Shown: piece after piece, positions 15,200 to 32,770 of the stretch
Position numbering within the stretch: the stretch's first letter is position 1
Layout of the letters: every line of letters begins with the position of its first letter
From: Anaeropeptidivorans aminofermentans
GTDB taxonomy: Bacteria; Bacillota; Clostridia; Lachnospirales; UBA5962
NCBI RefSeq assembly: GCF_940670685.1
Contig: NZ_OW711693.1
Span: forward strand, 1,984,001-2,048,000
Direction of reading: 5' to 3'
Length of the DNA: 64,000 nt
Translations under genes and position numbers: made by a program
The notes under the pieces: generated by a model
What the model saw: only the letters and a program-made list of their open reading frames with translations
The model's database searches: none
Told to the model about the DNA's origin: nothing

Positions 15200-15330
15200 T
15201 ATAGTAAAATAATTTAATTACATTAATAAAAACCGTATATTTTGAATGGCTTAATATAAACGTTTCTGTTATATTTAAGCCGTTTATGAAAAATAGGTTT
15301 TTGTCACTACCTTAAGGCTATTTTGCTGTA
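15200..15330. repeat. Family A MITE-like repeat, copy 2
   Basis: It starts TATAGTAAAATAATTT. It contains the GGCTTAATATAAACG..TATATTTAAGCC stem and AAATAGGTTTTTGTCACTACC, then ends in GCTATTTTGCTGTA. It shares the body with the copies at 43935 and 48775. It overlaps the last codons of spoIIIAH, whose stop lies inside it. Confidence 0.6.
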
Positions 15331-16049: not shown

Positions 16050-16061
16050 TTTAAGTCCTCC

Positions 16062-16655: not shown

Positions 16656-16757
16656 ATGTTCATCCCCTTAGTTTTCTCCGGTGTTTGGTGGTCTGCTTTT
16701 GAAAAGGCCTTGAAAAATCAATTCAATTTACCTGATTTTCCTGCTTAAATTATTACT

Positions 16758-16804
16758 TATAGTAAAATAGATTTTTGTTACTGCCTTAAGGCTATTTCAC
16801 TATA
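16758..16804. repeat. Short family A derivative inside the spoIIIA operon, copy 3
   Basis: This 47-bp element has inverted ends TATAGTAAAATA and TATTTCACTATA. Its core TTTTTGTTACTGCCTTAAGGCTA matches the copies at 15289 and 45505. It lies between spoIIIAF and spoIIIAG and starts 6 bases beyond the spoIIIAF stop. Confidence 0.6.
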
Positions 16805-16809
16805 TTGCC

Positions 16810-17433: not shown

Positions 17434-17443
17434 ATTGAACCTC

Positions 17444-18568
17444 CTAGAACGAAAGCACGATCATTACGGAAAAAACAAACATCAGGGCAACGATAAACGC
17501 CGAGGAAAGCATGAGAGCCGCATAGCTTCCCATGGTATTGATGCACTCAACGATTCTTTTATCGCAGATAGGCTGTATTACGGCGGCAGTAAGCTTATAA
17601 ATGACGATAAATACCCCTATTTTAATTACATAAGTAGCCATAAGCCCTATAAAAGCAATTAAAACCGCCGCAGATACCCCTGATTTGCAGGCATTGGCCC
17701 AGAACATTACAATATCCACCGCACCGGTCAATGTCTCCCCTACTACCGGAACTGCGTTTACAGCGGTTTTTGCTGTTTTTGCGGCAATATTATTCAATAC
17801 GGGAACACTTATTCTTTGAATGGAAAGGATAAACATAAAGCCCATGGTTGCAAGCTTTAAAAGCCATGAAATAATATCCTTCATTAGTTTTGAAAAGTTT
17901 GTAAGCATTTCATTTTCTGTAAGATAATTGATGATATTTACAGAGGCAATTACCATAATAAGAGGCATAATGACACTTTTAATTAATGTAATTATGAGAT
18001 TTGCCGAGAAAAACATAAGTGAATTAAATACATACCCTCCGCTTACATTGCCGCTCATGATAATTAGACTAACCATAAGGGGAACAGCCGCTTGAATAAA
18101 AGCGGATATTTGTACAACAAAATCCTCAAATATACCATAGGCTATTTTAAAAGACGAAAAAAGCACCATGACAAGTGCTATATATGTAATATAAAATCCC
18201 ATTTCCCCGACGGATTTATTTTTAAAAGAAAAAGTAAGATTTTTTAAAAGGGCTGAAAGAATGCCTATTAAAATAAGCTCTTTCAAAATATCCATATTTT
18301 CAAAAAACTCGCTGAAAGCAAGCTCTCCTGCCTTTTTTACTATGGCCCCGAAAGAAATATCCAGCTCTCCTGCTATGGCCTCTTTAACAAGGCTATCAAA
18401 ATCAGGTTTAAATGTCGCCGAGGATTTTTGTATCGTGCTTTTCACCTGGGAAAAATCCAACGCATCAAGCTGGCGGCCAAGGATTTCTTTATCGTCATAG
18501 GCATAGGCATCTATATGGATAAATGCAATCAATATTAAAGATAAAATTATAATCTTTTTCATAGGCAA
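17444..18568 (-). CDS. spoIIIAE: Stage III sporulation protein AE
   Basis: The product has 374 residues, starting with a signal-like helix (KKIIILSLILIAFIHI). It has about seven further membrane segments from residue 95 onward (for example ILIGILSALLKNL, MVLFSSFKIAYGIF, VPLMVSLIIMSG, VIMPLIMVIASV). The conserved LATMGFMFILSIQ and VVGETLTGAVDIV stretches match AE. It is a polytopic part of the SpoIIIA channel. It lies 20 bases after spoIIIAD. Confidence 0.93.
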   Translation of the reverse strand: MPMKKIIILSLILIAFIHIDAYAYDDKEILGRQLDALDFSQVKSTIQKSSATFKPDFDSLVKEAIAGELDISFGAIVKKAGELAFSEFFENMDILKELILIGILSALLKNLTFSFKNKSVGEMGFYITYIALVMVLFSSFKIAYGIFEDFVVQISAFIQAAVPLMVSLIIMSGNVSGGYVFNSLMFFSANLIITLIKSVIMPLIMVIASVNIINYLTENEMLTNFSKLMKDIISWLLKLATMGFMFILSIQRISVPVLNNIAAKTAKTAVNAVPVVGETLTGAVDIVMFWANACKSGVSAAVLIAFIGLMATYVIKIGVFIVIYKLTAAVIQPICDKRIVECINTMGSYAALMLSSAFIVALMFVFSVMIVLSF

Positions 18569-18588
18569 CCTCTTTAGCAGAAAGTTAA

Positions 18589-18990
18589 TTACATAATTAA
18601 ATCCAAAAGCGTAAGTATAATCGGTGCACTTAGAACCATAATAAGTACCTTAGCTGCCAAATCTATTTTAGACGCAATAGCACTTTCTCCTGCGTCTGTG
18701 CATATTTGGGAGGCAAATTCCGCAATATAGGCGATACCTATAATTTTTAATATTACAGGTACAAAACCCGTTCCTCCTGATATATTGGAAGATATTTTCT
18801 CCAATAGTTCAAACACGGCGGAAATTTTAGGTATTACCATGAAAAATATCAGTACCGATGCAGCTATTGAAATTACAAGTGCAATTTCCGGAGTCTGCTT
18901 TTTTATTGTAATAGAAAGCATTGCGCCTATGATGCCAATTGCCGCAACCTGGATAATATCCACAAAATATCCCCCCTTCAGAAAATCCAT
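18589..18990 (-). CDS. spoIIIAD: Stage III sporulation protein AD
   Basis: The product has 133 residues with about four membrane helices (IIQVAAIGIIGAMLSI, LVISIAASVLIFFMV and two more). The family blocks IIGIAYIAEFASQICTDAGESAIASKIDLAAKVLI and APIILTLLDLI are both present. It is a membrane component of the SpoIIIA complex. It lies 2 bases from spoIIIAC. Confidence 0.94.
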   Translation of the reverse strand: MDFLKGGYFVDIIQVAAIGIIGAMLSITIKKQTPEIALVISIAASVLIFFMVIPKISAVFELLEKISSNISGGTGFVPVILKIIGIAYIAEFASQICTDAGESAIASKIDLAAKVLIMVLSAPIILTLLDLIM

Positions 18991-18992
18991 AT

Positions 18993-19187
18993 TTACAATT
19001 TAAAAAGGGTCTGTATTGTCTGAAAAAGCTCGCTTATGTACTGTACCACCCAGAAAAGAACGATGACGAGGCCGGCAAGCGTTGTCATGGTGGCCTGTTC
19101 GCTTCTTCCTACGCTGTTTAAAACCTGATTTAAAACAGCTACTAATATTCCTACTGCCGCTATTTGAAAAACAACACCTATCTCCAT
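18993..19187 (-). CDS. spoIIIAC: Stage III sporulation protein AC
   Basis: The product has 64 residues, the usual size. Two membrane helices (IAAVGILVAVLNQVL and LAGLVIVLFWVVQYI) flank the conserved GRSEQATMTT loop. It is a small partner of AD and AE in the complex. It lies 10 bases after spoIIIAB. Confidence 0.95.
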   Translation of the reverse strand: MEIGVVFQIAAVGILVAVLNQVLNSVGRSEQATMTTLAGLVIVLFWVVQYISELFQTIQTLFKL

Positions 19188-19197
19188 AAAAGACCTC

Positions 19198-19719
19198 CTA
19201 AGCTAATACAATACATATGATGAGTCCTGAAAGTATGCCTAAGCTCCCATAAAGCTTTTTGCTTTTCTGAGAAGCTTCGCTGAGGTATTCCGTTTTTTCG
19301 TCAATATATTCTATCGTAAGCATGATATTATTAATCTGCATATTTTTATCAAGATAACCTAAAGTTCTGCCAAAGGACTTAAAGCTTTCAATATCTTCAT
19401 TTTCAAAATAAAGGAAACCCTTGCTTTCTGTTATTGCTTTCAGCCATATTTCATAGATGCCTGATTTTTTACTCTTCTCAGCTTCTTCATAAAAGGCTTT
19501 AAATATTTTTCCTACGTCTCCATCTATCTTTTGGGAAATATTATTCATTGCTTCGGGTAACGGCGTTAAAGAATATTCTATTTCAGACTTTAAAATATTT
19601 AAGGCCTTTTTCATTTCCAAAAGATCCTTAATTCTAAAAATATCCTTGCCTGCATAATAAAAGCCCATAAATGTAGTGGCCAGCATAACAAAAACGATAC
19701 CTGCAATTTTTATTATCAT
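19198..19719 (-). CDS. spoIIIAB: Stage III sporulation protein AB
   Basis: The product has 173 residues. N-terminal helix IKIAGIVFVMLATTFMGFYYAG and C-terminal helix LYGSLGILSGLIICIVLA flank a helical domain with ALNILKSEIEYSLTPLPEAM, the type II secretion GspF-like region of AB proteins. Its start overlaps the spoIIIAA stop by four bases (ATGA), indicating translational coupling. Confidence 0.94.
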   Translation of the reverse strand: MIIKIAGIVFVMLATTFMGFYYAGKDIFRIKDLLEMKKALNILKSEIEYSLTPLPEAMNNISQKIDGDVGKIFKAFYEEAEKSKKSGIYEIWLKAITESKGFLYFENEDIESFKSFGRTLGYLDKNMQINNIMLTIEYIDEKTEYLSEASQKSKKLYGSLGILSGLIICIVLA

Positions 19720-20672
19720 ATATTCACCCGCCTTAAATCCGGGCCGTATACGGCCTCGATATGTCCCGGACCGTTTTTATATCCCAAAAGAATATATCTT
19801 TCAAATATTCTTCTTTTTATAAGCTCCGCCATATCCGGCTTTTCCATCACATCTTCAATTGAGTTTCCATGAATTGTAGATATAATTTTAACGCCGGCGT
19901 TCACAATGCTTTCTATGGCTTTGACGTCATCTTTGCTCCCTATTTCGTCTACGATAATTACCTTAGGAGCCATGCTCCGTAAAAACATCATCATTCCCAC
20001 AGCCTTAGGGCAGCCGTCCAGAACGTCCGTTCTCATCCCTATATCATTTTGAGCAACCCCCATATAACATCCGGCTATTTCGGAACGCTCATCTACAATG
20101 CATGTATTAACCCCTTTAAACATGCCTTCCACTCCGTTTGAAAGCTGCCTTGCAATATCTCTTAAAAGGGTCGTCTTTCCGCAGCCGGGGGGTGAGATTA
20201 TCAAAGTATGCTTTATATTGGGAAGAGTAATTTCTTCTATTATTTTGTCGGAGCAGCCTATGATTTCATGGCTTAGCCTTATATTTAATCCGCTGACATA
20301 AGAAATGGTTTTGACTAAACCGCCTTCTGATACGGTTTTTCCGCTTATTCCTACTCTATGGCCTCCGGGAAGGGTTATATATCCGTTTTTAAGCTCGTCC
20401 CCTATGGAATAAAGGGAAAAATTACTCATGAGCTCAAGGGTCTTTTTTATATCTTCTATGCTTGTCCTATAGGCTTTATTCATGTCCAATGTAAGCCCCT
20501 TTTCTTTTGATAGATAATATTCCTTTGTTTTTATTTTAACTATGAGGGGCTTCTTTGCTCTTAAGCGAAGCTCTTCTACTTCTTTTATATAAGCGTTTTC
20601 AACCCTTTCAAAAAGAGAAGATATGCTTTCCGAAAGATATTCTATTAAAACTTCTTTTTTCATAGGTATCAC
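19716..20672 (-). CDS. spoIIIAA: Stage III sporulation protein AA (AAA+ ATPase)
   Basis: The product has 318 residues. It is the ATPase of the SpoIIIA complex. Walker A is SPPGCGKTTLLRDIAR near residue 160 and Walker B is APKVIIVDEIGSKDDVKAI near residue 235. GGHRVGISGK precedes these, as expected. It is the first gene of the eight-gene operon, so the promoter should lie in 20673-20790. The family operon is transcribed by SigE in the mother cell. A MITE-like repeat starts about 115 bases upstream of the ATG. Confidence 0.96.
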   Translation of the reverse strand: MIPMKKEVLIEYLSESISSLFERVENAYIKEVEELRLRAKKPLIVKIKTKEYYLSKEKGLTLDMNKAYRTSIEDIKKTLELMSNFSLYSIGDELKNGYITLPGGHRVGISGKTVSEGGLVKTISYVSGLNIRLSHEIIGCSDKIIEEITLPNIKHTLIISPPGCGKTTLLRDIARQLSNGVEGMFKGVNTCIVDERSEIAGCYMGVAQNDIGMRTDVLDGCPKAVGMMMFLRSMAPKVIIVDEIGSKDDVKAIESIVNAGVKIISTIHGNSIEDVMEKPDMAELIKRRIFERYILLGYKNGPGHIEAVYGPDLRRVNI

Positions 20673-21020: not shown

Positions 21021-21404
21021 TCACAAATCGCTTGTTTTAGGTTTGCTGCCAATAAGCTTAATATCGGCTCCTAAGTGCTGTAAATCTTTTTCTATGCATT
21101 CATATCCTCTTTCAACAAATTCCGAATGGGTAACGATGGTCTTTCCTGTAGCCACCAATCCGGCTAGAATTAAAGCGGCTCCCCCCCTCAGGTCTTTCGA
21201 TGTGACGGCAGTTCCGTTTAGTCTGCTTACACCTTTTACAACAGAGGTCATTCCGTCAGGAAGAAGAACAATATTTGCACCCATGCGTATCAGTTCAATA
21301 ATATGCTTGTTTCTTGATTCAAAAACCGTTTCTTCAACAATACTCGTTCCATCGGATATGGCAAGCATAGTCATAAACTGTGCCTGCATATCTGTTGGAA
21401 ATCC
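21021..21404 (-). pseudogene. murA: murA 3' part, separated from its 5' part by the intervening element
   Basis: The frame opens at the junction core and reads ..GFPTDMQAQFMTMLAISDG.., then the rest of the MurA C-terminal domain (ETVFESRNKHIIELIRMGA, SRLNGTAVTSKDLRGGAALILAGLVATG). The conserved FPTDMQAQ holds the catalytic Asp (Asp305 in E. cloacae numbering). About 127 codons are present. On their own they cannot make an enzyme and have no start signal. Joined to the end of the 5' part at the shared core, the frame continues without loss to about 427 residues in total. The gene is thus interrupted rather than eroded. Confidence 0.93.
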
Positions 21405-21422
21405 TGAATGAAATAAAGGTAA
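21385..21422 (+). other. Attachment-site junction, murA 3' side (attR-like)
   Basis: The core GGAAATCC at 21397-21404 is shared with 31729-31736. On the left is murA sequence. On the right are 10 bases and then AAAGGTAA (21415-21422), the element arm whose inverted partner TTACCTTT is at 31711-31718. Confidence 0.85.
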
Positions 21423-21441
21423 TAATAGAAACTAACAAAAT

Positions 21442-21467
21442 AAAAAGTCCTCTAGCCGGGGCTTTTT
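21442..21467. terminator. Terminator between the element edge and the CAAX protease gene
   Basis: AAAAAGTCC pairs with GGGGCTTTTT with one G-U pair. Flanking A and T runs extend the stem on both sides. It shields murA from minus-strand transcription coming out of the element. Confidence 0.7.
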
Positions 21468-21489
21468 AATTTTGTTTCGGTTTCTGATG

Positions 21490-22383
21490 CTATAGCGAAT
21501 CAGCTTTTTTCCCATCGCTTTTTTTCAGTAAAAGAAAAGCGATAGCTATTACAGTACTATATCCAACGATTGCAGGCAAAGAAGCCTCAATGCCAAATGC
21601 ACCGCCTGTCAACAATTTGGATTCAGATGTTAATTTGTAAGTGAATATTGCTGATGACGGTTCGATACTTATTTCTAATATCCTGCCAATTATAATAAGG
21701 TTCCATATACCATGCACGATAGCACTTGCCCATATTGAGTTGCTTTGAATTGCTATCAGAGAGAACATAATGCCTACAGCAGTGCCCGCGATTACCAGAA
21801 TAAGAATATCAGTAATATTGGGACTATTCATATTAAAAATGTGCAGCAATCCAAACAATACCGACGGAACAACGACTGCAATAGTTTTCCCCCATCTGAT
21901 TTCCAGTACATGCATTATCAATCCGCGAAACACCAATTCTTCTGTTATTCCAGCAACTAGGCATGAGCTGAAAACGGCACGCAGCATAATCCTAATATTT
22001 TTTGACATCTCAAAATTAGATGCAGAGAAAGTTCCGGGAGTCATAAAAACAAAAAATCCTGATACTACAAGAGGAAGTATGAAAGCGCATACACTCCACA
22101 TCATGATGCTTTTAGGTTTGCATATACGAAAATCCCCCAAAGGCAGTTTCAAAACTTTACTGATATACAGACATACAAGCAGTGAAAGTACGGTTATCTC
22201 TAACACTGGCCTAATCACTGCTAATAAAATTGAAGCTTCTAGTTTTGTTATGGCATAAAACAAGTCAACAGGCAGTGATGCTAAAAGATTTCCGATAAAT
22301 AGAATAATAACTCCCATCACCACATGAAAGATTGCCTTCATCCCATGCTTGTCGTGCTGTATATCCGATAAAGCCTTTATCAT
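21490..22383 (-). CDS. CPBP (CAAX/Abi) family intramembrane metalloprotease
   Basis: The product has 297 residues and about eight membrane segments. The family motifs are EELVFRG (catalytic Glu pair) near residue 145, FGLLH near residue 177 and HGIWN near residue 225. Bacterial members process peptides or bacteriocins or act in immunity; the substrate here is unknown. No bacteriocin gene is adjacent. It is the first gene inside the element at the murA 3' side. From 22384 to 22640 I see no gene. Confidence 0.88.
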   Translation of the reverse strand: MIKALSDIQHDKHGMKAIFHVVMGVIILFIGNLLASLPVDLFYAITKLEASILLAVIRPVLEITVLSLLVCLYISKVLKLPLGDFRICKPKSIMMWSVCAFILPLVVSGFFVFMTPGTFSASNFEMSKNIRIMLRAVFSSCLVAGITEELVFRGLIMHVLEIRWGKTIAVVVPSVLFGLLHIFNMNSPNITDILILVIAGTAVGIMFSLIAIQSNSIWASAIVHGIWNLIIIGRILEISIEPSSAIFTYKLTSESKLLTGGAFGIEASLPAIVGYSTVIAIAFLLLKKSDGKKADSL

Positions 22384-22640
22384 TGAAAAAATGCCCCTTC
22401 CATATATTTAATTCATCTGATTCACCGCTTAACTTGAATAAATTATAGCAAAAAATACAGCAATATACCACTAAGATCATGACATTTGTTTTTGCCACCT
22501 TTTCAGGGTTTATTTTATCTATGAATAAATAGAATAGTTAAATAATATGCAAGAAATTAATCCCGTTATTTATTACTTTAGTTGTATAAAAGCAATATTT
22601 GTTATAATATACTGATTTTATATTATAGCGAACAAATTCC

Positions 22641-23001
22641 ATGTTAGGAGTGGGAAATATCATAAACAATCCGCTTTTAATCAGACCTTTAAAGGTTTTA
22701 GAAAAGGAAATTGGGAGTATCGGCAGAAATATTTTGACTTTGAGGAAACAAAGGTTAATGGAAGCTGTGGCCTTTATAATTACCACAATTTTGGTGAATG
22801 GCTTAACCTTATCCGTTCCATTGAAAAAGATAAACTAGTAAATAACCTTCACACAAGCACATTTTTTCTATACGTAAAGAAGACAGCAAAATTATAGGTA
22901 GTATAAAACTTCATCATTTTTTAATACCGGATTTAGAAAATCATGGCGGACATATAGCTTATGGAATACGTCCATCAGAAAGAAAAAAGAGGATTTGTTG
23001 A
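22641..23001 (+). pseudogene. GNAT-family acetyltransferase, frameshifted and truncated
   Basis: Three frames together read like a GNAT protein: LLIRPLKVLEKE, then WEYRQKYFDFEETKVNGSCG..FGEWLNLIRSIEKDK..LHTSTFF, then SIRKEDSKIIGSIKLHHFLIP..GGHIAYGIRPSERKKR. Shifts occur near 22710 and in the T run near 22868, where one T appears lost. The acetyl-CoA loop RPSERKK is followed by a stop, so the C-terminal third is missing. It is not functional. Confidence 0.75.
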
Positions 23002-23011
23002 GGTGATGCAT

Positions 23012-23497
23012 TTGTTTAGATTACTAAAAGAGAATAAAATGAAAATAGTTTTATTGCTGATATTATTAGATGTTATCCTTATCTTCTGTTTATTTGTTAA
23101 AACAAATATAGAAGCAGTCATGACTGCTTCTATCGTTGAAACTTCCAATACAAGAGAAAAGTATAATCAGCTGTTAGTAAATACATATTTAACTAAGATT
23201 GAAGAGGCATCAAACGATTTTTATGATGAATATTATACTACTTCACCAATCATAAACTATTATAGTGTTTTTGTGAAAGACATTACTTCTAATAATACTA
23301 CCTACTATGTTACTTTCATATCAGAACCCTATCTTGGACCACATGACACTATTGGAATTGATGAAATTACTTTCTCGGCAGATTATCTTGGAAATGTGAA
23401 ACCAGAAAAATTTAATCACATTATAAGTTATAAATTACCTGATAATCTTAAAGAACTTGAAAAAAAGAGAGTTCCCGGAAAATATTCTGAAGATTGA
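23012..23497 (+). CDS. Small membrane-anchored protein of unknown function
   Basis: The product has about 161 residues from TTG 23012, chosen because GAGGTGAT at 23000-23007 fits it. ATG 23006 abuts that site, and ATG 23042 lacks one. A single membrane helix (KIVLLLILLDVILIFCLFV) near residue 15 is followed by an extracellular domain rich in Tyr, Thr and Asn. It resembles DUF3888-like anchored proteins in layout, but I am not certain of the family. It starts where the GNAT pseudogene ends, so the two may once have been separate cargo genes. Confidence 0.5.
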   Translation: MFRLLKENKMKIVLLLILLDVILIFCLFVKTNIEAVMTASIVETSNTREKYNQLLVNTYLTKIEEASNDFYDEYYTTSPIINYYSVFVKDITSNNTTYYVTFISEPYLGPHDTIGIDEITFSADYLGNVKPEKFNHIISYKLPDNLKELEKKRVPGKYSED

Positions 23498-23525
23498 TTG
23501 AACCTAAATCATTTAATTATAACTA

Positions 23526-23691
23526 CTAGGCAGTGTCTGAAAACAGTCAAACCGACGGATATTTTGCAAGAAAATGTGAATTCGAAGAGAAAAGCGCAGA
23601 AATAGCAGGGCTATTTCGAGTATTTTCGATGAAGAAGTCACGTTTTTATGGCAGAATAGACTAGGTTTTGGACTTTTCAGACACGCCCTAG
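23526..23691. repeat. MITE-like element inside the murA element
   Basis: Imperfect inverted ends are CTAGGCAGTGTCTGAAAAC (23526) and GACTTTTCAGACACGCCCTAG (to 23691). The interior has no ORF. Sequences with GTGTCTGAAAA ends recur in clostridial genomes, as far as I know. From 23692 to 24165 only small hairpins are seen: GCAATCC/GGATTGC near 23740 and AAAGATGC/GCATCTTT near 23852. Confidence 0.6.
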
Positions 23692-24165
23692 CAATTTCTC
23701 GCCCCTGAACTTTCACGAGATTATCAAATACCGCCATAAAAGAGCAATCCTAACTTGGATTGCCCTTTCCTTTATCATTTAAAGTGTCAATAGCCTTAAT
23801 AATACCGCCGGCATCTATAAATATTTTCGTGGATTGGCTCCTTTCACAATAAAAAAGATGCTTTAAGCATCTTTATAGAATAGACCTTCTGGATATTCAT
23901 CTTTAAAATTCAATATTAATTAGTAAAGTCACAAAATATAATCATACGATAAGATATAAATCAATAATATGTAATGATATAGAATTATCGTTCTTACCTC
24001 TACTAAAATCTTCTTAAGTGCTGCTATACACCTTTCATAGTTTAGGCATAACTTCACACCTTGCTTTATCAAATTGATATATCTAAAGAATGTCAATTAT
24101 CTAAATCATATTAAACAGACTGTACCAAAAAGGTATAGCTGTACTATAAATGAAAGGGTGATATT

Positions 24166-24645
24166 ATGGCTGATATACTGAAGACATTCTATATTCTTGG
24201 TAGAGCTTACGGGTTTTTACATCAGCTCATGCCTGATAAGTTAGGCGTTGGACAAAAAATAGACCTGGCTTGCGTGTCTCCAACTGTATCATTTGCCACA
24301 TCGACAGCTGCTGCCCACAAAAATAGGATAATGCTCGAAGACATTTCTTATATATATAGCATAATATTAAACGATGTAGATGTAGAATTAATGGAGGAAT
24401 TACCTAACAACCCTAATTTAGAAGAACAGGGTCAATGGATGTCGGGATTCTACTCCGGAGGACAATTACATGCCCTCAGGGGAGGAAGGCTATTAGCTCA
24501 AGAACGTAATAGAAAAAATCTTACACAGGAACAATTAGCGGCGCGGTTGGGTATCAGTGCTTTACAGTTAAACATTTGGGAAAACAATTTTCGTTCTGTA
24601 CCTGTGAATTTTTATCAAAAGATATACGAAACACTATTTATCTAA
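24166..24645 (+). CDS. Protein with C-terminal XRE-type helix-turn-helix
   Basis: The product has 159 residues. Residues 105-155 carry an XRE-like HTH: GRLLAQERNRKNLTQEQLAARLGISALQLNIWENN. The first 100 residues are unfamiliar and include the Gly/Ser-rich WMSGFYSGGQLHA linker. GAAAGGGTGA precedes the ATG. It may regulate element genes or the recombinase, but nothing in the sequence proves this. Confidence 0.65.
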   Translation: MADILKTFYILGRAYGFLHQLMPDKLGVGQKIDLACVSPTVSFATSTAAAHKNRIMLEDISYIYSIILNDVDVELMEELPNNPNLEEQGQWMSGFYSGGQLHALRGGRLLAQERNRKNLTQEQLAARLGISALQLNIWENNFRSVPVNFYQKIYETLFI

Positions 24646-24685
24646 ATCTTAGCAGCGTAAATTGCTTGCAGGTATAAAAAACTAG

Positions 24686-24723
24686 AATAATCCGCTAATC
24701 TTTATGATCGGGGCGGATTATTT
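24686..24723 (+). terminator. Terminator behind the HTH gene
   Basis: AATAATCCGC pairs with GCGGATTATT, followed by TCTTTTTG. From 24724 to 25110 no convincing gene is visible. Confidence 0.65.
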
Positions 24724-25114
24724 CTTTTTGTTTGCTAAATGTACATATAAATCCCAATATCACTGCGGTTCTAATGTATATCAATGCTTTTAACCAATAT
24801 CGAGATTCATTACACGGAGAAAATATAAAATCAAAAGAGCCGAAAATATCTATCATAATAAACCTTATGTATATTGCATACATAATTTTGTCATAAACAT
24901 TCTGCTTTGAATTTTACTGAGTTCTAAGCAACAAACAAAATTATATCATGAAATGAAATATATTAATAATTCATTTATCATTATTACCCTCCAAAATAAT
25001 TGGTTAATATAAATATATACTTATAGAATTTGCTTTTACTGAAACATGGCGAGTAAATCCCAATGGGAAAGTTCTGCTTCTACCTGAACGTAGTGAAGGC
25101 GAGGTTTGCTGTTT

Positions 25115-25166
25115 TAAGCCCCTTATAGGGGCGGATTCTTCAAACCACCCGCTATGCGGGTGGTAC
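25115..25166. mobile_element. Right-end remnant of an IS200/IS605-type element
   Basis: Hairpins AAGCCCC/GGGGC (25116-25132) and ACCACCCGC/GCGGGTGGT (25144-25164) match the pattern of the IS200 right ends at 3222-3268 and 49972-49991. No transposase remains. Confidence 0.5.
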
Positions 25167-25167
25167 T

Positions 25168-25427
25168 GATTTTACCACCAACTTCTTCAATCAAGTCATT
25201 CAAAGGCTTATTCAAATCACTATTTACTGCTTTCTTAATTTCTGCCCAGCTCATGAAACCACTTCCTCTTTTATACTTCCATCTGCTTCAAACATGGTGT
25301 TTACTGTACTCTGGCTTTTAACGGTTTTCCCGTCATCTTGATATACCGTGACTGTCACAGAAATACTTCCGCCTTCATTAAAAATCGTTATGTTCCCGTT
25401 TTCCAGAAACTCCGTTATTTTATCAAC
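25168..25427 (-). pseudogene. Two small phage tail-region genes, remnants
   Basis: On the minus strand, VDKITEFLENGNITIFNEGG..VKSQSTVNTMFEADGS stops at TGA 25251-25253. That stop overlaps ATG 25254 of a second frame (MSWAEIKKAVNSDLNKPLN..), which runs into the IS remnant at 25166 and is cut off. Such pairs of small overlapping genes occur near tail-fibre genes of Firmicutes siphophages; this assignment is by resemblance. Confidence 0.45.
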
Positions 25428-25810
25428 CTAACTTAAAGCTACCAAATTATCAAAATCATAAGCTTGAAGCATTGCAATATCCGTCTTATCAGAACCAAAC
25501 CAGTAATCAAAGTATCTTTCCTGCTATTAAGCTCTGTCTCAAATTCTTCCTCCTGTGCCTGAAGTTGGTTTTCAAAGCTTGCTTCGTAGAAATCCATCTT
25601 TTCAAAGAATTTATCTGTGAAATCCCGAAACATACCCTCCGTCTCTGCCGTTATAAAGAAATTCAGCAGCCCATATACAGAAGAGTTAAGTCTTTTGTCC
25701 ATTATGTCTGCCGGCCTTATGTCCGTGGCTCCGGCTGAAAGCCCTACCTGTACAAGGGATACGTAGATATTATTATTTCTTGTGAGCTGTGGGGCTGTAG
25801 GGCTTAAGGA
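25428..25810 (-). pseudogene. Phage tail protein remnant, frameshifted
   Basis: The frame NNNIYVSLVQVGLSAG..DIRPADIMDKRLNSSVYGLLNFF..FENQLQAQEEEFETELN shifts near 25510 and continues as ERYFDYWFGSDKTDIAMLQAYDF..LVALS before a stop. One lost or gained base explains it. It resembles siphophage tail/baseplate proteins in composition and position. The bases from 25811 to 25984 contain no clear gene. Confidence 0.5.
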
Positions 25811-25984
25811 GGGGGGTTCCGGTTATCACGGCAGGCATAACCTTTCTCACGGCTCATCTGAAGTGAACTAGTCTTTGATTTGATAAACATTTAATTCAGG
25901 AAACAACCTACGCGTAGTTTGTCCATAAACTATAGTATGCTACTAAGAATGTCTGCATAAATTTACACCTGATGGAGGTGAAAA

Positions 25985-26539
25985 ATGAGTAATTGTAACA
26001 ATAACTGCCAGAAATATTGTTGCCGCTGTAATCAATCTCCGTGCTGCTGCCCCGGCCCTAAAGGCGCTAGGGGTCCTATCGGTCCCGTTGGTCCCAGAGG
26101 CGATACAGGTCCTGCAAACGGTCTCAATGCCTATGGAGGTGCATTTTATTCTAATGTAGATACAATACTACATCTTCCTGATCATAACGATAAGCCCCTG
26201 CCTCTCAACAGTGCCATGACTGCAGCGTTAAATGTAGTAAATAGCCCCGTGGACAGCCTTACAGTTAAGGTTGCTGGGGATTATGAGATTTACTATTATT
26301 TTTCAGCTACAATAGATGTAACCGCTTTTGTTAACTTCTCAGTAACAGTAAACGGCAGTCCTCTTTCAAGTACATTCCAAGTTTTACTTCCTGAAAAAAA
26401 TCTTATTACAGGCACTGTCATTGTTTCTTTAAATGCAAATGATGTTATCAGCACTAATATATTTGGATTTACATTTATTAATATAAAGTTGTCTCCATAT
26501 GTCAGTACAATATTAACAGTAAAAAAGTTGAACGCATAA
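25985..26539 (+). CDS. Collagen-like spore-surface (BclA/exosporium-type) protein
   Basis: The product has 184 residues. A Cys-rich head (CNNNCQKYCCRCNQSPCCC) leads into seven Gly-X-Y triplets (GPKGARGPIGPVGPRGDTGPA), then a 130-residue beta-rich C-terminal domain like the BclA/C1q-type heads (AGDYEIYYYFSATID, VNFSVTVNGSPL, VSLNANDVISTNIFG). Proteins of this layout coat spores in Bacillus and Clostridia. TGATGGAGGTG gives a strong ribosome site. Its reading frame is intact although the genes around it are decayed, which suggests selection. A terminator follows. Confidence 0.8.
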   Translation: MSNCNNNCQKYCCRCNQSPCCCPGPKGARGPIGPVGPRGDTGPANGLNAYGGAFYSNVDTILHLPDHNDKPLPLNSAMTAALNVVNSPVDSLTVKVAGDYEIYYYFSATIDVTAFVNFSVTVNGSPLSSTFQVLLPEKNLITGTVIVSLNANDVISTNIFGFTFINIKLSPYVSTILTVKKLNA

Positions 26540-26547
26540 CATAGTTT

Positions 26548-26606
26548 AAGGAATAGCCCCTAATTTATCTACCATAAGGAATAGATAGAGGAACTATTCC
26601 TTTTAT
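26548..26606 (+). terminator. Terminator behind the collagen-like gene
   Basis: AAGGAATAG pairs with CTATTCCTT, with an inner CTATC/GATAG stem and a T tract. Confidence 0.75.
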
Positions 26607-26639
26607 ATGTTCTGCATTACCGTCTTTAGAAATACCTTA

Positions 26640-27580
26640 CTGCTTTCTCTAAAGCCTTTTTACTTTCTCTTGCCACTTTAGCAGGGCTTGCCGTAGGCGT
26701 GCTTACGCTTTTGTAAAGCTGTACATTATTATTAGTAGTATATGTTTGCAATTTGTGCGCCTGCTACAGATGGGAATAACTATCGGTGGAAGACATTATA
26801 TCGGCTATCATCTCATTAAAAGCATTTCGCCCTGCCGCTGCACCTGCAAACTCGGATACATGCTCTTTAAGCTTATCCTATTATATTTGTAGTACTTTAA
26901 TTCATCAACTTTCCGATTTCAGTGTTATTAGTTGTCGTATCATCTTTTTTCTGCTTCAGGAAAGCGGCATACTCCTTTTTTACGTCGCTAAAGTTTGCTT
27001 AAGGTCGTCAATGGATTTTTTATTATTTTTCTTTAAAGTGCTTAATTCTTCCTCTGGTTTTTTGGTGTAGCCTTAAGAGCTTCCTTGTGCATAGCAATTG
27101 TCACAGCTCTTTTTTCCTGCAAAGCCTCTTTTTGCTGGGAAAGATGTTTTTAGCTAAGTCTATTTTTTCTCTTTAGCTTTCCTTCTCGTATTCGAGAGAT
27201 TCTTTACACTTTTCGTTTTCCGTAGTGAGATTGTCGATTCCCTTTTGCATCTCATATTTATTGCTGTCGTCGGTTTCAAATTTCAAGATCTCTTTCAAAC
27301 GATTTATTTTGTCTTGATAATCTTCGCCAGCTTCTTAACGCTCTTCAGCTTTCAAAAGGGCGCTATGGTCTTTATTTTATCCTCATAGACAGCGATTTCA
27401 GCATTTGCCGCAGCTTCTGTCGCCTTTATTTCTTCGTCATAGCGTTTTTTGACCTCATCAATCAGGCCTTTGATGCGCTCTTTTTCGGCAGAAATGACTT
27501 CTTTGATTTTCTCTTTCTGAAGAGCAATAATTCGTTTCACTTTATCCTTTGACGCCGCAGAGCCTTTAGCCTAATAAATT
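26640..27580 (-). pseudogene. Phage tail tape-measure-like gene, heavily decayed
   Basis: On the minus strand, fragments in changing frames give coiled-coil sequence: VKRIIALQKEKIKEVISAEK..KRYDEEIKATEAAANAEIAVYEDK (27352-27540), then INRLKEILKFETDDSNKYEMQ..IDNLTTENEKCKESLEYEKE. Further stops and shifts follow down to about 26640. The length, heptad pattern and neighbours suit a tape-measure protein. It is clearly non-functional. Confidence 0.5.
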
Positions 27581-27822
27581 TGGAGTAATTCCCATATCTT
27601 TTAACATCTTATTAATTTCATCCTTCGTAATTACGCTTCCTCCCAATTCGAAATATCTTTATTATTAACTTTTACTTATTTTTCCTGTTTTGAATAAATT
27701 GGTAATTTTCTAAAGTTGCAATAAAGCTGTCCACAAACTGTAACCCTCTCTTATTTTCTCAATATACTATTAAAAGAAGCATAATGCTTCATCTAAAATA
27801 ATAGAGGAAGTGAAAAGAGAAT

Positions 27823-28212
27823 ATGGTATATAAAAACATTGAAAATACAGTATCCTTTACAAGCGCCGCCGGCGTATACTTAGGAAACGATGAAGTGTTG
27901 GTTGCATTGGAATCCACTGAATATACATTTGAAAAAACAGCAGATCCAGAAATATGGTCGGGAGAAGGTCAGCTTTCTTATACAATTACTCTTACAAACG
28001 TCTCAGGAGATGATTTAACAGATATTACTGTTACCGATGTTCTGCCTAGTGACGTTACATTTCTCCCTGCGACTGTTGAAATTAATGGAGCAACTAGCAC
28101 TAATTTTGACGATTCCGGTTTACCGACCGTTGAATTTGGTACAGTAACTCCGTTAAGCGTAACAAGCTTAGAGCCACTCGTAATTACCTTTCAAGTTGAA
28201 AAAACCCCATAA
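27823..28212 (+). CDS. DUF11-type surface repeat protein
   Basis: The product has 129 residues. Residues 45-125 match one DUF11-type repeat (YTITLTNVSGDDLTDITVTDVLPSDVTFLPATVEING), an immunoglobulin-like fold normally found in tandem in surface proteins. No signal peptide or sorting motif is present, which would suit a spore-coat or mother-cell product. AGGAAGTGAAAAG precedes the ATG. Its end overlaps the next frame by 17 bases. Confidence 0.6.
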   Translation: MVYKNIENTVSFTSAAGVYLGNDEVLVALESTEYTFEKTADPEIWSGEGQLSYTITLTNVSGDDLTDITVTDVLPSDVTFLPATVEINGATSTNFDDSGLPTVEFGTVTPLSVTSLEPLVITFQVEKTP

Positions 28213-28618
28213 TAATTGGGAAGTACTTTTGAACAAAGCCTATGCATGGAGTACAGAAAAGGGAATGTTTTTTTCTAACACATCTGTTGTTTACCGCAAG
28301 CGTTATCCAAAACCTCCGCCTGTACCGAAAAAACCGTTCTATTTTATTCGTGTGCGGATAGATTGTAATTGCCGGTGGCATTACTATCTTTGCTGTGTAT
28401 GCCCAAAGACCCGCAAAAAGATTTGCTGGGAATATGACCATACCAAGTACATGAAGAAAATTTACTGCAATTGCTGTTATCACCCCATGATTTATGAAAT
28501 CAGAACTTGTCGCGACCGTGACGGGATGTATTATGCCTGTCTCTTTGCTGTTTGCCCAAACTGTAGAAACGAAAAACTTATTCAAACCTACTTCATTGAA
28601 ATGAGACAATGGAAATAA
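28196..28618 (+). CDS. Cys-rich protein of unknown function
   Basis: The frame gives up to 140 residues, with about 14 Cys in its last 90 (CNCRWHYYLCCVCPKTRKKICW, YCNCCYHPM, CRDRDG, CPNC), compatible with zinc-ribbon-like knuckles or disulfide cross-linking as in coat proteins. The start is unsure: TTG 28196 overlaps the previous gene and has no clear ribosome site, so coupling is possible. The PKPPPVPKKP stretch is a proline linker. It pairs with the DUF11-type gene and has a terminator behind it. Confidence 0.5.
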   Translation: MKKPHNNWEVLLNKAYAWSTEKGMFFSNTSVVYRKRYPKPPPVPKKPFYFIRVRIDCNCRWHYYLCCVCPKTRKKICWEYDHTKYMKKIYCNCCYHPMIYEIRTCRDRDGMYYACLFAVCPNCRNEKLIQTYFIEMRQWK

Positions 28619-28622
28619 GCTG

Positions 28623-28645
28623 GGAAGCCGTATATCACGGCTTCC
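28623..28645 (+). terminator. Terminator behind the Cys-rich gene
   Basis: GGAAGCCGT and ACGGCTTCC pair perfectly around ATATC, followed by TTCTTTATTT. Confidence 0.8.
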
Positions 28646-28689
28646 TTCTTTATTTAGGTGTTATAAAAATAAAATTAAGTTATCTCGTT

Positions 28690-29276
28690 CAGCTTTAATT
28701 TTTTCTTTCATAGCCGATCTCCTTTATCTCAATAATTACCCTAAGATTTTTAGAATCTATATCAGAAATATCTGTAAAACCAACGACGTCGTGCCAGCCA
28801 TCATTTTTTTACTTACCAGAAGTAACAAGGGCATCCTGAATAAATTTTTTAACAAAGTCTATGCTATCCTTATTCCTTTATGATTAGGCTCTATCCATGG
28901 GTAAATTTATGTGCAGGTAATTTGATTTTGCCTTTAAACTGATTTTTAGCCGGCGTAATTATACTGCCTCAGTATATTTTTTAAGCTTATTGCCTATCAT
29001 ATCTGCTGCCCCTATTTTTGTATGTATATTCATTCAGCCCCGGCAAAGAACCGAGAATCCTTAATGTATGGGCCATGCTTATTCCTTTTCTGCCACTTCT
29101 TTAATCAAAAATGCTATCTTATCTAAGTCATCTAAATAAAATACCCCGTTAAATCCACTGGCGTATAGATGCCTGTTTAAAACGCCTCTACATATATCCT
29201 CGCTTGCAAAGTTAAGCCTTTTAATCTTTTCAGAGTTAATTATAAATATCTCTTGGCCCTCCTTGATGTTGGGCAA
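28690..29276 (-). pseudogene. Decayed phage-region genes
   Basis: The clearest piece is 29079-29276 (from TTG 29276, IKEGQEIFIINSEKIKRLNFASEDICRGVLN..FYLDDLDKIAFLIKEVAEKE). The same frame stays open further upstream, so its true start is lost. Downstream to 28690 only short broken frames are seen. It lies in the same orientation as the other tail remnants. Confidence 0.35.
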
Positions 29277-29443
29277 AAGAATAAGTCGCCAGCCCTTCCA
29301 GCTGGTCAGCCCCTATCCCAGGTTTACTTGTCCATCAAAACCTGTCTTACAAAAGTACTTTTATCTATCGGGTCCATGACAACTCCTTTCTCCAGGCTTG
29401 TCCATAATATAAGGCCACATTTAATTTATGGCCTGCTGGATAT

Positions 29444-29767
29444 TTATAATGTGCTTCGGGCCTCCTGTGAGCGCCGGAGCATATCCAAGTTAGAGACTAT
29501 ATATTCTTCGATTTTTTTAAGGTCATCGGGATTAGTGGTTTCTTTTTGCCATTTATATAAGCATTTAAGCTGTGCGTTGACAACTTCATCAAACCTATCA
29601 GTGCCAATGATAGCTACGCCCATCTGTTCGGCAATAATATCAAGCTTTTCTTTGCTGAAATGAATCTTTTCGGGATATTCTTGCTCTCCAGTGACGTTTT
29701 CAAGGGTTTCTCTATTCACACCGCAGAATTTAACTTTAATATCTAACTTGCCACATTTTACAATCAC
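29444..29767 (-). CDS. Small phage-type protein (possibly tail-assembly region), unrecognised
   Basis: The product has 107 residues from GTG 29767, preceded by GAAAGGTGGTGAGG. It is acidic and helical, with EKLDIIAEQMGVAIIGTDRFDEVVNAQLKCL. The frame looks intact. Position beside tail remnants suggests a tail-assembly protein, but I do not recognise the family. Confidence 0.4.
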   Translation of the reverse strand: MIVKCGKLDIKVKFCGVNRETLENVTGEQEYPEKIHFSKEKLDIIAEQMGVAIIGTDRFDEVVNAQLKCLYKWQKETTNPDDLKKIEEYIVSNLDMLRRSQEARSTL

Positions 29768-30143
29768 GGCCTCACCACCTTTCCAATTATTATATGTTTA
29801 TCAAAATATGTCCTATTACGTTTAAAGTTGTCACCGCTTGGTTTCTTGGCCTTTTGGCCCTGTTGTTTGAGTGCGAGAACATTCAGCTATTGAAAATGGC
29901 GAAATAGATCTATTTGATCTTAACAGTGAATCATATTGTAAGAAGTTCCATATAGCCTAAAATAATAAAAAAATTGAGTTTATATCCTTAACTCTTAAAT
30001 ATGAAGGCATAGTTGTAAATGAAGATGATAATTTAAGAACGGTCGGCAGAGTAATGTTATGAATTATATAAACCTTCCCTCTTTTCTTCTGAGGTCATAA
30101 ATTAAAATACCTTTGCGTAGAGCGCAGGCTCTGAGAAGCAACT

Positions 30144-30175
30144 GTCGTCTCTCTAAGAGGGACGTGGATTGAAAT
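30144..30175 (+). CRISPR. Single CRISPR-like repeat resembling type I-C, no array
   Basis: This 32-base unit begins GTCGTCTCTCTAAGAGGG and ends ACGTGGATTGAAAT. The inner palindrome CGTCTCTCT/AAGAGGGACG and the 3' tail GTGGATTGAAAT are hallmarks of type I-C repeats. No second copy follows within 150 bases and no cas gene is in the window. A GC-richer stretch (GCGTAGAGCGCAGGCTCTGAG, about 30116-30136) precedes it. From 29768 to 30143 I see no gene. Confidence 0.55.
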
Positions 30176-30318
30176 TCGCTTTTTTATTGCCCAAAAGCTA
30201 TTATGCCTGACGCCCATCTGAGAAAGATAAATCGAAACAAAAAAATAATTAAACTAACAATCATAAAAGAATATAAAAACCTAGCCGGAATAAATATATA
30301 AGGGGGTGATTAAGACAG

Positions 30319-31704
30319 ATGATAGACTGCGCCTTATATGTACGTAACAGCACCGATAAGCAAGAGCACTCCGCAGAAAATCAAAAAGAGGTATTAACGG
30401 AGTATGCTAAAAAGAATAAATATAATATTGTAAAAACCTATGCCGACGAAGGCATTTCCGGCACAAGGGCAGAAAAACGGCCTAATTTTATGCAGATGAT
30501 TGAGGATAGCGCTTCCGGCTTATTTAGTGCTGTGTTGATTTTTGACAGCAGCCGTTTTGCTAGAAATCTGCAAGAAAGCCTTGTATATAAATCCATTTTA
30601 AAAAATAACAATGTAAAATTAGTTTCTATTACAGAACCAAATCTTGATGATGAATCTGCCCTGCTCACCGACGCCCTTCTTGGAGCCATGAATGAAATGT
30701 TTTCTATTAAGCTTTCAAAAAACGTAATCAGGGGTATGGAATATATGGCCCAAAACGGGGAATTTCCTGTTCCGCCGCCATATGGATATGTAAAAATAAA
30801 TGGTGTAATGACCGTTGTCGAAAAGGAAGCAAAGCTTGTTAGAAAGATTTATGAAATGTACCTTGAAAGGCCCGTATATCATGCTGTCACCGTTGCTATT
30901 AATGAGGAAGGATATACCACTCGTAAAGGGTATAAATGGGCTTCAAGAGATATAAAACGTATTGTAACGAATCCTGCTTACATCGGCTATATCCGATATA
31001 GGGGCAAAGATTATAAAGGTACGCATGAGCCTATTATTACAGAGGAGTTGTATGACAAAGTGCAGAAGATAATAAAAAATATGCCAAAAAGGCAAATGCG
31101 CCCGGCAAACACAGTAAAACACTGGCTGTCTGGGCTGCTTAAGTGCAGTAAATGCGGGGCTACCCTCGTTTGCATAACGCCTAAAAAAGGCGGCCCCTTT
31201 TTCCGTTGTCATTCTCAGGCCGTCGGTAAATGCGATGTTTCAAACTTTACCCCTGTACATATGGCCGAACGAATAATCATTTCAGCTCTTCAAGAATTAT
31301 CTGCGTCCAGTAACATCAATATGGAGTATTTAAACTACACCCTAAAGGCGGCCAATGCAGATAAGAAAACGTCCCTTGAAGAAGCTCTTAAAAAACTGGA
31401 AGCAAGACTTGAACGCCATAAAGAAGCCTACGCCCTCGGCGTGGACACCATAGAAGAATATAAGGCAAATAAAGAAATATGCGATAAAGACATACAGACT
31501 GTAAAATTAAATTTAGCATCCCTTAAGATTGATGACATTGAGGGAAAGCTTGCTGCATTACAAAAAAATTCCGCTGAATTTTTACAAAGCTTAAAAAATG
31601 ACGGATTATCCATAGAGGCTAAAAACATAGCCGCAAAAGCAATTATAAGCAAAATCGAAATAGACCGGAAAACCAATGAATTTAGGATTTTTTATTTTTT
31701 ATAA
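30319..31704 (+). CDS. Large serine recombinase (site-specific integrase/excisionase)
   Basis: The product has 461 residues. Domains in order are: the resolvase catalytic domain (residues 1-150; nucleophile Ser11 in YVRNSTDKQ, then EGISGTRAEKRPNFMQM and FDSSRFARN), the Recombinase domain (about 160-265; PPPYGYVKING, NEEGYTTRKGYKWASRDIKRIVTNPAYIGYI), a zinc ribbon (CSKCG .. FFRCHSQAVGKCD) and a coiled coil (about 345-440). GGGGGTGA precedes the ATG. Its stop lies 25 bases from the junction core, the usual place for the enzyme acting on that site. All catalytic residues that I can check are present. Confidence 0.96.
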   Translation: MIDCALYVRNSTDKQEHSAENQKEVLTEYAKKNKYNIVKTYADEGISGTRAEKRPNFMQMIEDSASGLFSAVLIFDSSRFARNLQESLVYKSILKNNNVKLVSITEPNLDDESALLTDALLGAMNEMFSIKLSKNVIRGMEYMAQNGEFPVPPPYGYVKINGVMTVVEKEAKLVRKIYEMYLERPVYHAVTVAINEEGYTTRKGYKWASRDIKRIVTNPAYIGYIRYRGKDYKGTHEPIITEELYDKVQKIIKNMPKRQMRPANTVKHWLSGLLKCSKCGATLVCITPKKGGPFFRCHSQAVGKCDVSNFTPVHMAERIIISALQELSASSNINMEYLNYTLKAANADKKTSLEEALKKLEARLERHKEAYALGVDTIEEYKANKEICDKDIQTVKLNLASLKIDDIEGKLAALQKNSAEFLQSLKNDGLSIEAKNIAAKAIISKIEIDRKTNEFRIFYFL

Positions 31705-32636
31705 ATATACTTACCTTTCCAGCATTCCGGAAATCCCGGATGGGGATGGGTCCTCAGCCTTTCTAGGGCTTTAAGTCTTTCCGGGGCATCAAGATATATT
31801 ATATTTTTTTCTATTGTAATATCGCAGCCGGCTTCAATAAGCTTCGAGGTAATTGGGTAAAGATGTTGGGGAACAACGTTATTAAGGAGTATATTGCCCT
31901 TTGTTATTGCCGCTGCTACGAGATAGGTTCCGGCTACAATCCTGTCAGGCATTACAGTATATTCAACCTCATGAAGGTTTTTAACACCCTTGATTATAAT
32001 ATTATCCGTTCCCGCTCCGCTGATATTTGCCCCCATTGCATTTAAGAAGTTTTGCATATCGGCTATTTCAGGCTCTTTGGCGGCATTGCCTATAATAGTC
32101 GTTCCTTCTGCCAAGGCTGCCGTAAGCATAATATTTTCAGTCGCCCCTACACTTGGAAAATCAAGGTCTATACGCGCACCTTTTAACTTCGTAGCTTTAC
32201 ATACGATAAAGCCGTTTTCTTCTATGATTTCCGCTCCAAGCTGACGTATTCCCTTTAAATGCAGGTCAATGGGTCTCGCTCCAAGCTCGCACCCTCCCGG
32301 ATAAGAAATTCTAACGTTTTTGAACCTGCCAAGAATTCCTCCTAAAAATATTATGGAAGATCTCATTTCTCTTACAGGTTCTACAGGTACTTCCCAGTTT
32401 CCTGCATTTCTTGAATCAACAATAATCGTGTTTTTGTCTACTTTTACTTCGCAGCCTATAGCTTTTAAAATATTAATTGCCACATAAGTATCTGATATTC
32501 TCGGGCAATTGTGTATCACACTAATATTCCCGTTAAGTACTGCTGCTGCCAAAATCGGCAAAATAGCATTTTTCCCCCCGGCAATACTTATTTCTCCGCT
32601 GATTTTATTGCCGCCATAAATATGGTACTCACCCAA
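31692..32636 (-). pseudogene. murA: murA 5' part, truncated by the intervening element
   Basis: The family enzyme, UDP-N-acetylglucosamine 1-carboxyvinyltransferase, starts peptidoglycan precursor synthesis. The start is TTG 32636 behind GGAGGT. The N-terminal GGNKISGEISIAGGKNA, catalytic Cys116 in PGGCELGARPIDLH and the rest run normally to THPHPGFP (residue 303). Then 11 foreign residues from the element lead to a stop. The lost part holds the catalytic Asp, so this 314-residue product should be inactive. Excision at the core would restore about 427 residues, matching the family length. Whether another murA copy exists elsewhere cannot be seen here. Confidence 0.94.
31711..31745 (+). other. 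Attachment-site junction, murA 5' side (attL-like)
   Basis: Element arm TTACCTTT (31711-31718), 10 bases, core GGAAATCC (31729-31736), then murA. The mirrored arm with the same 10-base spacing is at the other junction. Confidence 0.85.
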
Positions 32637-32738: not shown

Positions 32739-32770
32739 TATATTATGCTGTAATTATTTGAACTGTGACA
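32739..32770 (-). promoter_or_regulatory. Possible mother-cell sigma-factor promoter of murA (weak)
   Basis: On the minus strand CATAATATA (32739-32747) fits the SigK-type -10 pattern CATAnnnTA. CAC at 32765-32767 could serve as the -35 AC, 17 bases away. It lies about 100 bases before the murA start. Short AT-rich matches arise by chance, so this is only a lead. Confidence 0.2.

What the first reader, a model, noticed from the sequence alone, without database searches (positions are those of the whole stretch)
21021..32636. murA is split by a 10.3-kb excisable-looking element: a candidate new gene-intervening element in a sporeformer
Seen: the 5' part of murA ends ..THPHPGFP then 11 foreign residues. 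The 3' part opens GFPTDMQAQ. The two parts are 10.3 kb apart in the same orientation and meet at a shared GGAAATCC. Joining them at the core restores one frame of about 427 residues, the normal MurA length. The catalytic Cys lies in one part and the Asp in the other, so neither part should work alone. Known: skin in sigK and similar elements are removed by large serine recombinases in the mother cell to restore a gene. Inference: this is the same strategy applied to a peptidoglycan-precursor gene, next to the spoIIIA operon. The enzyme could be needed for cortex synthesis, with a second murA used in growth.
Basis: partly seen in the sequence, partly recalled or inferred. Interest (0 to 1): 0.93.

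Follow-up and report, generated by a model that had tools for sequence, protein, structure and literature searches.

The report
Removable DNA element splitting sporulation murA
In this spore-forming bacterium a third copy of the cell-wall gene murA, which carries a spore-stage type of promoter, is cut in two by a 10.3-kb element that encodes its own DNA recombinase; the element looks built to be cut out precisely during spore formation to restore the gene, and relatives, including one phage, sit in exactly the same spot in other bacteria.

Summary
murA (minus strand) is split at GGATTTCC into 32636-31729 and 21404-21021. The insert is 10,332 bp, and joining the halves gives one open frame of 427 aa. 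The genome has two other intact murA genes, so this is a third paralog.

New evidence goes further. (1) The element's ends, joined, make a palindromic attP (16/22 symmetric positions; 2 of 200,000 random pairs as good) centred on the TT that site comparisons also give as the crossover. (2) Four other records (two bacteria in different families, one further bin, one 39-kb phage contig) have a related large serine recombinase (LSR) against the same murA codon; the five LSRs are one clade (100/98). (3) Orthologs of this murA, split or intact, carry a sigmaK-type promoter (21 of 35 upstream regions; 0.35 expected). (4) The split gene evolves no faster than intact orthologs.

Best reading: a phage-derived sporulation gene-intervening element of the skin/gin kind, with a new target. 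Its LSR plus an unidentified directionality factor would excise it in the mother cell, restoring a late mother-cell MurA. Excision, cell-type restriction and enzyme activity are inferred, not shown. A related LSR lineage splits a coat-like gene in 13 or more other bacteria, often with halves far apart.

The parts
31729..32636 (-). 5' part of murA-3 (from TTG start with GGAGGTGG ribosome site; an upstream in-frame ATG lies at 32696); holds the catalytic Cys loop; the reading frame runs on 11 foreign codons to a stop at 31692
21021..21404 (-). 3' part of murA-3, starting in the core (GFPTDMQAQ...), holds the catalytic Asp; stop at 21021
21397..31728 (.). intervening element, 10,332 bp (one copy of the core included); G+C 36.1% against 36.8% for the window
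31707..31758 (-). attL: murA half-site + core GGATTTCC + element arm CGGAATGCTGGAAAGGTAA
21376..21428 (-). attR: element arm TTACCTTTATTTCATTCA + core GGATTTCC + murA half-site; with the attL arm forms a palindromic attP (16/22) centred on TT
30319..31704 (+). large serine recombinase, 461 aa: resolvase catalytic domain, recombinase domain, zinc ribbon; catalytic-motif residues R9, S11, D76, R79, R82 invariant among relatives
32739..32767 (-). sigmaK-type promoter CACAGTTCAAATAATTACAGCATAATATA upstream of murA-3
25985..26539 (+). cargo: collagen-like exosporium (BclA C-terminal domain) protein, with sigmaK-like AACCTACGCGTAGTTTGTCCATAAACTA at 25905
21490..22383 (-). cargo: CPBP intramembrane protease family protein
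24166..24645 (+). cargo: Cro/CI-type helix-turn-helix regulator
27823..28212 (+). cargo: DUF11 repeat protein
29444..29767 (-). small protein with weak local similarity (46% over 24 aa) to a small ORF beside the LSR of the Defluviitaleaceae element; only a lead for a directionality factor

Best explanation
A phage-derived, LSR-encoding gene-intervening element sits in the third murA paralog (murA-3), a gene with a sigmaK-type (late mother-cell) promoter that is probably dispensable for growth because two other murA genes are intact. During sporulation the LSR, helped by an unidentified directionality factor, would recombine attL with attR at the TT of GGA-TT-TCC in the mother-cell chromosome. 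That would release the element as a circle and rebuild a 427-aa MurA that feeds late peptidoglycan synthesis, probably cortex. The forespore chromosome would keep the element, so it is inherited. SHOWN: anatomy, att sites, restored frame, family conservation, promoter consensus, absence of decay. INFERRED: excision, its restriction to the mother cell, directionality factor, enzyme activity, cortex role.
For: Element, core and restored frame. LSR with all domains and invariant catalytic residues. attP symmetry 16/22 centred on TT, far above any other shift, 2 of 200,000 random pairs as good, attB only 7/22; the G001 attP is 15/22 at the same centre. The shared bases at the two junctions of window, G001 and L081 intersect in the same TT. 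Same insertion codon with a related LSR in G001/CAMLLW010000023, Defluviitaleaceae WRAC01000014, bin WQUN01000256 (L081) and phage contig IMGVR_UViG_3300010162_000361; the five LSRs are monophyletic, 100/98. The phage contig carries terminase, portal, protease, capsid and tape-measure genes. Intact orthologs in relatives. murA-3 is a clade apart from murA-1/-2; the window branch (0.23) is no longer than those of intact relatives (0.28, 0.36); dN 0.20 (5') and 0.21 (3') with synonymous sites saturated. SigmaK-type promoter upstream of 21 of 35 sequences tested (33 of the murA-3 group, split genes included, plus own murA-1 and murA-2, which lack it), 0.35 expected; in a control set the only two hits are a murA-3-clade member and one of eight murA-1/-2 genes. 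Sister LSRs split a coat-like gene, and in G398 an uninterrupted coat gene and a contig ending at the LSR-arm core coexist; in G394 three contigs break at the core. In B. anthracis a murA paralog mutant is severely impaired in sporulation (PMC12700454).
Against: No joined murA-3 or circular element was seen for this organism; the genus has a single held genome. No directionality factor identified. No sigmaE/K consensus site upstream of the LSR. Promoter assignment rests on a consensus; orthologs are not independent (eight of the tested genes are from one family). Purifying selection was measured mostly over time before the insertion. The 3' half of the Defluviitaleaceae case is missing from its assembly, and L081's attP is not symmetric.
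Confidence: 0.75

Rival explanations
1. A phage-derived mobile element simply parked in a dispensable extra murA copy; the gene is broken for good and any excision is rare and unrelated to sporulation.
For: Two other intact murA genes make loss tolerable. The element is mostly hypothetical or degraded cargo with no identifiable directionality factor. LSR integrases often target conserved genes. The Defluviitaleaceae case lacks a detectable 3' half.
Against: Both halves stay open and unaccelerated, also in G001 where they lie on different contigs; att half-sites are intact; the target carries a sigmaK-type promoter and sister LSRs hit another spore-type gene, which is the known bias of gene-intervening elements toward mother-cell genes (PMC6957869).
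Confidence: 0.17
2. Reversible phage-type switch (active lysogeny): the element excises and re-integrates in part of the population under stress, not tied to the mother cell.
For: A related element is a complete-looking phage; in the yin element of C. botulinum excised circles occur at all growth stages (PMC10747680).
Against: The window element has no phage structural genes; the sigmaK-type promoter makes a joined gene useful only late in the mother cell.
Confidence: 0.06
3. Assembly artefact or chimeric join.
For: None found.
Against: Single 3.76-Mb contig; exact 8-bp core and palindromic attP; the same arrangement in independent assemblies.
Confidence: 0.01
4. The two parts are made separately and assemble into a two-chain MurA.
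For: Both parts are open and the 3' part has an in-frame ATG at 21389.
Against: The split falls just before the catalytic Asp, no obvious ribosome site or promoter serves the 3' part, and elsewhere the halves are at unrelated loci.
Confidence: 0.01

Closest known systems
gin element in gerE, Bacillus cereus ATCC10987 (PMC5595907)
   Same: non-phage gene-intervening element, LSR, short shared core (9 bp there, 8 bp here), splits a mother-cell gene
   Different: target is gerE; 28.6 kb with three LSR genes and a known directionality factor GirX; excision shown there, not here
skin in sigK of B. subtilis and C. difficile (PMC5025042)
   Same: LSR element in a late mother-cell gene; att half-sites with imperfect inverted repeats around a short core; restores the frame on excision
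   Different: target is a sigma factor; directionality factors known (CD1234, Skr); here sigK is not split
SPbeta in spsM (PMC4191935), yin in yabG (PMC10747680), vfbin in spoVFB, element in spoVR (PMC6957869)
   Same: phage or phage-like LSR elements in sporulation genes; here too a related phage occupies the site
   Different: murA is in none of the lists of targets found in these papers; those recombinases were not compared with this one in sequence
MurA paralogs MurAA, MurAB, MurAC of Firmicutes (PMC9600426)
   Same: a third MurA paralog is known to exist in Firmicutes (MurAC)
   Different: that study found no link between sporulation and paralog number; here the third paralog has a conserved sigmaK-type promoter; identity with MurAC was not tested
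C. difficile phage phi027 next to a CotJC-like gene (PMC11222575)
   Same: phage inserted at a spore-coat catalase gene, like several wider LSR relatives found here
   Different: different target and host

Membership tests
Sporulation gene-intervening element (skin/gin kind) | splits a protein-coding gene so that precise removal restores one frame | tested here: met
   single 447/427-aa frame on joining at GGATTTCC
Sporulation gene-intervening element (skin/gin kind) | encodes its own serine recombinase with matching att half-sites | tested here: met
   LSR; attP symmetry 16/22, 2 of 200,000 random pairs as good
Sporulation gene-intervening element (skin/gin kind) | interrupted gene is expressed in the mother cell / needed only in sporulation | tested here: inconclusive
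   sigmaK-type promoter upstream of window gene and 21 of 35 tested genes, other murA copies intact; no expression data
Sporulation gene-intervening element (skin/gin kind) | excision during sporulation, with circular product | not testable with these tools
   needs cells; only indirect support from the sister coat-gene elements in metagenome assemblies
Sporulation gene-intervening element (skin/gin kind) | directionality factor in the element, sporulation-controlled | tested here: inconclusive
   no family match; weak lead 29444-29767; scan for small ORFs with a strong ribosome site found none
Prophage | phage structural and packaging genes in the element | tested here: not met
   only integrase, HTH and weak collagen-like tail-fibre matches; but met in the related contig G405
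MurA (UDP-GlcNAc enolpyruvyl transferase) | both parts belong to MurA and join to full length with Cys and Asp | tested here: met
MurAC clade of Firmicutes | phylogenetic placement with published MurAC sequences | not tested
   no reference sequences at hand; only that it is a third clade apart from murA-1 and murA-2

The most novel reading that the evidence does not exclude
Some members of this LSR family have become fixed host genes that join gene halves lying at distant chromosomal loci, so that sporulation involves a programmed large-scale chromosome rearrangement in the mother cell rather than removal of a small element. In G001 the LSR lies beside miaB and the murA 3' half beside spo0A on another contig. 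In five MAGs the coat-gene LSR sits next to ung, with the 5' half on a different contig in those where a separate half was found.
Probability: 0.25. Interest if true: 0.88.

Novelty: new member of a known kind. Interest (0 to 1): 0.74.

Why it matters
No paper found names murA, or any peptidoglycan-precursor gene, as a target of developmental gene reconstitution. The family ties a third MurA paralog, whose role in Firmicutes is open, to the late mother cell through a conserved sigmaK-type promoter, and so makes 'what is the extra MurA for' directly testable. It also shows one recombinase lineage specialised for one codon of one spore-stage gene across several families, with a phage member as its likely source, and sister lineages on a coat-like gene and cotJC. 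This suggests that mother-cell genes are a general refuge for LSR elements in Clostridia.

Tried and rejected
A genus-level search held only this genome, so there is no close empty-site relative. A class-wide LSR search (391 genomes) added no further murA-type LSR. SigmaE- and sigmaG-type sites were not enriched upstream of murA-3. The sigmaK motif was not general upstream of the coat-like gene (2 of 18 upstream sequences). The solitary CRISPR repeat was checked for a self-targeting spacer: no match of 13 bases or longer in the window and none beside the LSR. Testing whether the joined coat gene of G398 has the flanks of the two half-loci of relatives failed because gene order is not shared. 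dN/dS could not be given as a ratio because synonymous sites are saturated. Paper searches for murA as an intervening-element target gave nothing. An assembly artefact was considered and rejected.

Full report
WHAT IS THERE. The window is 1984001-2048000 of a single 3.757-Mb contig. On the minus strand murA is cut in two. The 5' part ends ..THPHPGFP and runs into eleven foreign codons; the 3' part resumes GFPTDMQAQ. The two copies of GGATTTCC (21397-21404 and 31729-31736) lie 10,332 bp apart; removing one core plus the insert gives an open frame of 427 aa from the TTG start (447 from the upstream ATG). The genome has two further complete murA genes and an aroA-like gene. In a tree the split gene belongs to a third clade, apart from both of them. 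The adjacent cluster 15318-20672 is spoIIIAA-AH. The sigK-like gene elsewhere in the genome is not split.

THE ELEMENT. It carries one large serine recombinase (30319-31704) converging on the 5' murA part, with catalytic, recombinase and zinc-ribbon domains. Its residues Y7, R9, S11, D76, R79 and R82 are invariant in relatives. The rest is a CPBP protease, an HTH regulator, a BclA-type collagen-like protein, a DUF11 protein and unassigned or decayed sequence; no phage structural gene was matched. Base composition equals that of the host.

ATT SITES. Joining the two ends gives TTATTACCTTTATTTCATTCAGGAT|TTCCGGAATGCTGGAAAGGTAAGTA: 16 of 22 positions are symmetric about the centre of the TT, none of the twelve other shifts tested exceeds 11, and 2 of 200,000 random pairs of window segments do as well; the reconstituted attB has 7. 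This symmetry exists only in the joined product, which argues that the ends are those of a circularising LSR element. Independently, the bases shared by both junctions are GGATTTCC here, TTTCCTA in G001 and CCGGATT in L081: they intersect in the same TT. The G001 attP is 15/22 symmetric at the same centre; the L081 one is not symmetric.

OTHER OCCUPIED SITES. LSR relatives at 44-47% identity abut the same murA codon in G001 (CAMLLW010000023.1, same family; 3' half on another contig beside spo0A, 64% identical and open), in a Defluviitaleaceae MAG (WRAC01000014.1, different family; 3' half not found), in WQUN01000256.1 (LSR 42% identical; both halves on one contig, about 3.1 kb apart, LSR in the opposite orientation) and on IMGVR_UViG_3300010162_000361. 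The last is a 39-kb contig with terminase, portal, maturation protease, major head and tape-measure genes, that is, a temperate phage at the same site. The five LSRs form one clade, 100/98. They have diverged to 42-47% identity with the window's yet keep the same target codon. Elsewhere in the order the orthologous murA is uninterrupted.

IS THE SPLIT GENE ALIVE? The window branch is 0.23 against 0.28 and 0.36 for the nearest intact orthologs. Nonsynonymous distance to the intact G005 gene is 0.20 (5') and 0.21 (3') with synonymous sites saturated. G001 keeps both halves open although they lie on different contigs. This does not prove function, because part of the divergence predates insertion, but shows no decay.

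WHY A SPORE-STAGE GENE. A sigmaK-type site ([AC]AC, 16-19 nt, CATAnnnTA) lies upstream of the window gene and of 21 of 35 sequences tested, against 0.35 expected in shuffles, across at least six families. The 35 are 33 genes of the murA-3 group, split ones included, plus the two other murA genes of this genome, which lack it; sigmaE- and sigmaG-type sites are not enriched. In a control set of nine, one of eight murA-1/-2 genes has a site, and so does the ninth, which belongs to the murA-3 clade. The chance rate in this window is about 2% per 260 bp. A published survey found a third MurA paralog in Firmicutes without a known role and without correlation to sporulation (PMC9600426), and a B. anthracis murAB insertion severely impairs sporulation (PMC12700454).

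SISTER SYSTEM. The nearest other LSRs split a coat-like gene at CRQQ|DCL in 13 or more MAGs. The gene is intact in the window's genome and has a sigmaK-type site there. In G398 the coat gene is uninterrupted while a contig ends at the LSR arm plus core; in G394 three contigs end or begin at the core. That is what an assembler yields when joined and unjoined forms coexist, by recombination or by strain mixture. In five MAGs the LSR sits beside ung, and where a separate 5' half was found it is on another contig, as if the LSR were now a host gene. This is the basis of the novel case, and it needs closed genomes.

MECHANISM. Shown: a site-specific LSR element inserted at one codon of a third murA, with intact sites and intact halves. 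Inferred: the LSR plus an unidentified directionality factor act in the mother cell, join the halves at TT, and allow a sigmaK-type MurA to be made while the spore chromosome keeps the element. Literature precedents are skin, SPbeta/spsM, gin/gerE, vfbin, spoVR and yin/yabG (PMC5025042, PMC4191935, PMC5595907, PMC6957869, PMC10747680). None lists murA. I file it as a new member of that kind in working mode, with the excision criterion untested.

CONFIDENCE. Precise LSR insertion at an attB in murA-3: about 0.97. Programmed, sporulation-linked reconstitution: 0.75.

Noticed in passing
window 30144-30175 (+): A single type I-C-like CRISPR repeat (GTCGTCTCTCTAAGAGGGACGTGGATTGAAAT) lies alone inside the element, 144 bp upstream of the recombinase gene; the genome has a long array at C1:3579842 onward whose repeat differs at 3 positions. 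Possibly a mini-array or a regulatory relic.
   Followed up: partly
L080, L082, L083, L084, L086, L087, L089-L091, L093-L096, L016: Related LSRs split a coat-like gene at CRQQ|DCL in 13 or more Clostridia MAGs, in both orientations; no Pfam or NCBIfam name for the protein.
   Followed up: partly
L160, L167, L174, L176, L015 (3' half); L164, L169 (next to cotJB); L166 (5' half): More distant LSRs abut halves of cotJC (manganese catalase spore coat protein) or cotJB: another recurrent sporulation-gene target.
   Followed up: partly
L129:11435-11752 (IMGVR_UViG_2833105606_000006): An LSR abuts a truncated polysaccharide deacetylase gene, possibly a cortex-modifying enzyme.
   Followed up: no
L088, L092: Two Lachnospiraceae LSRs abut what looks like the 3' part of a substrate-binding protein gene (weak NMT1/SsuA match), so not every target is obviously a spore gene.
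   Followed up: no
L149 (G401:C5:13000-28000): The same MAG that has a split murA-3 also has a split coat-like gene, with its own LSR and a 1960-aa protein inside a 13.5-kb element.
   Followed up: partly
window 3426-3881, 46114-46503, 2665-3147, 49346-49864: Several copies of IS200/IS605-type single-domain transposases; the copy at 46114-46503 is truncated relative to that at 3426-3881.
   Followed up: no
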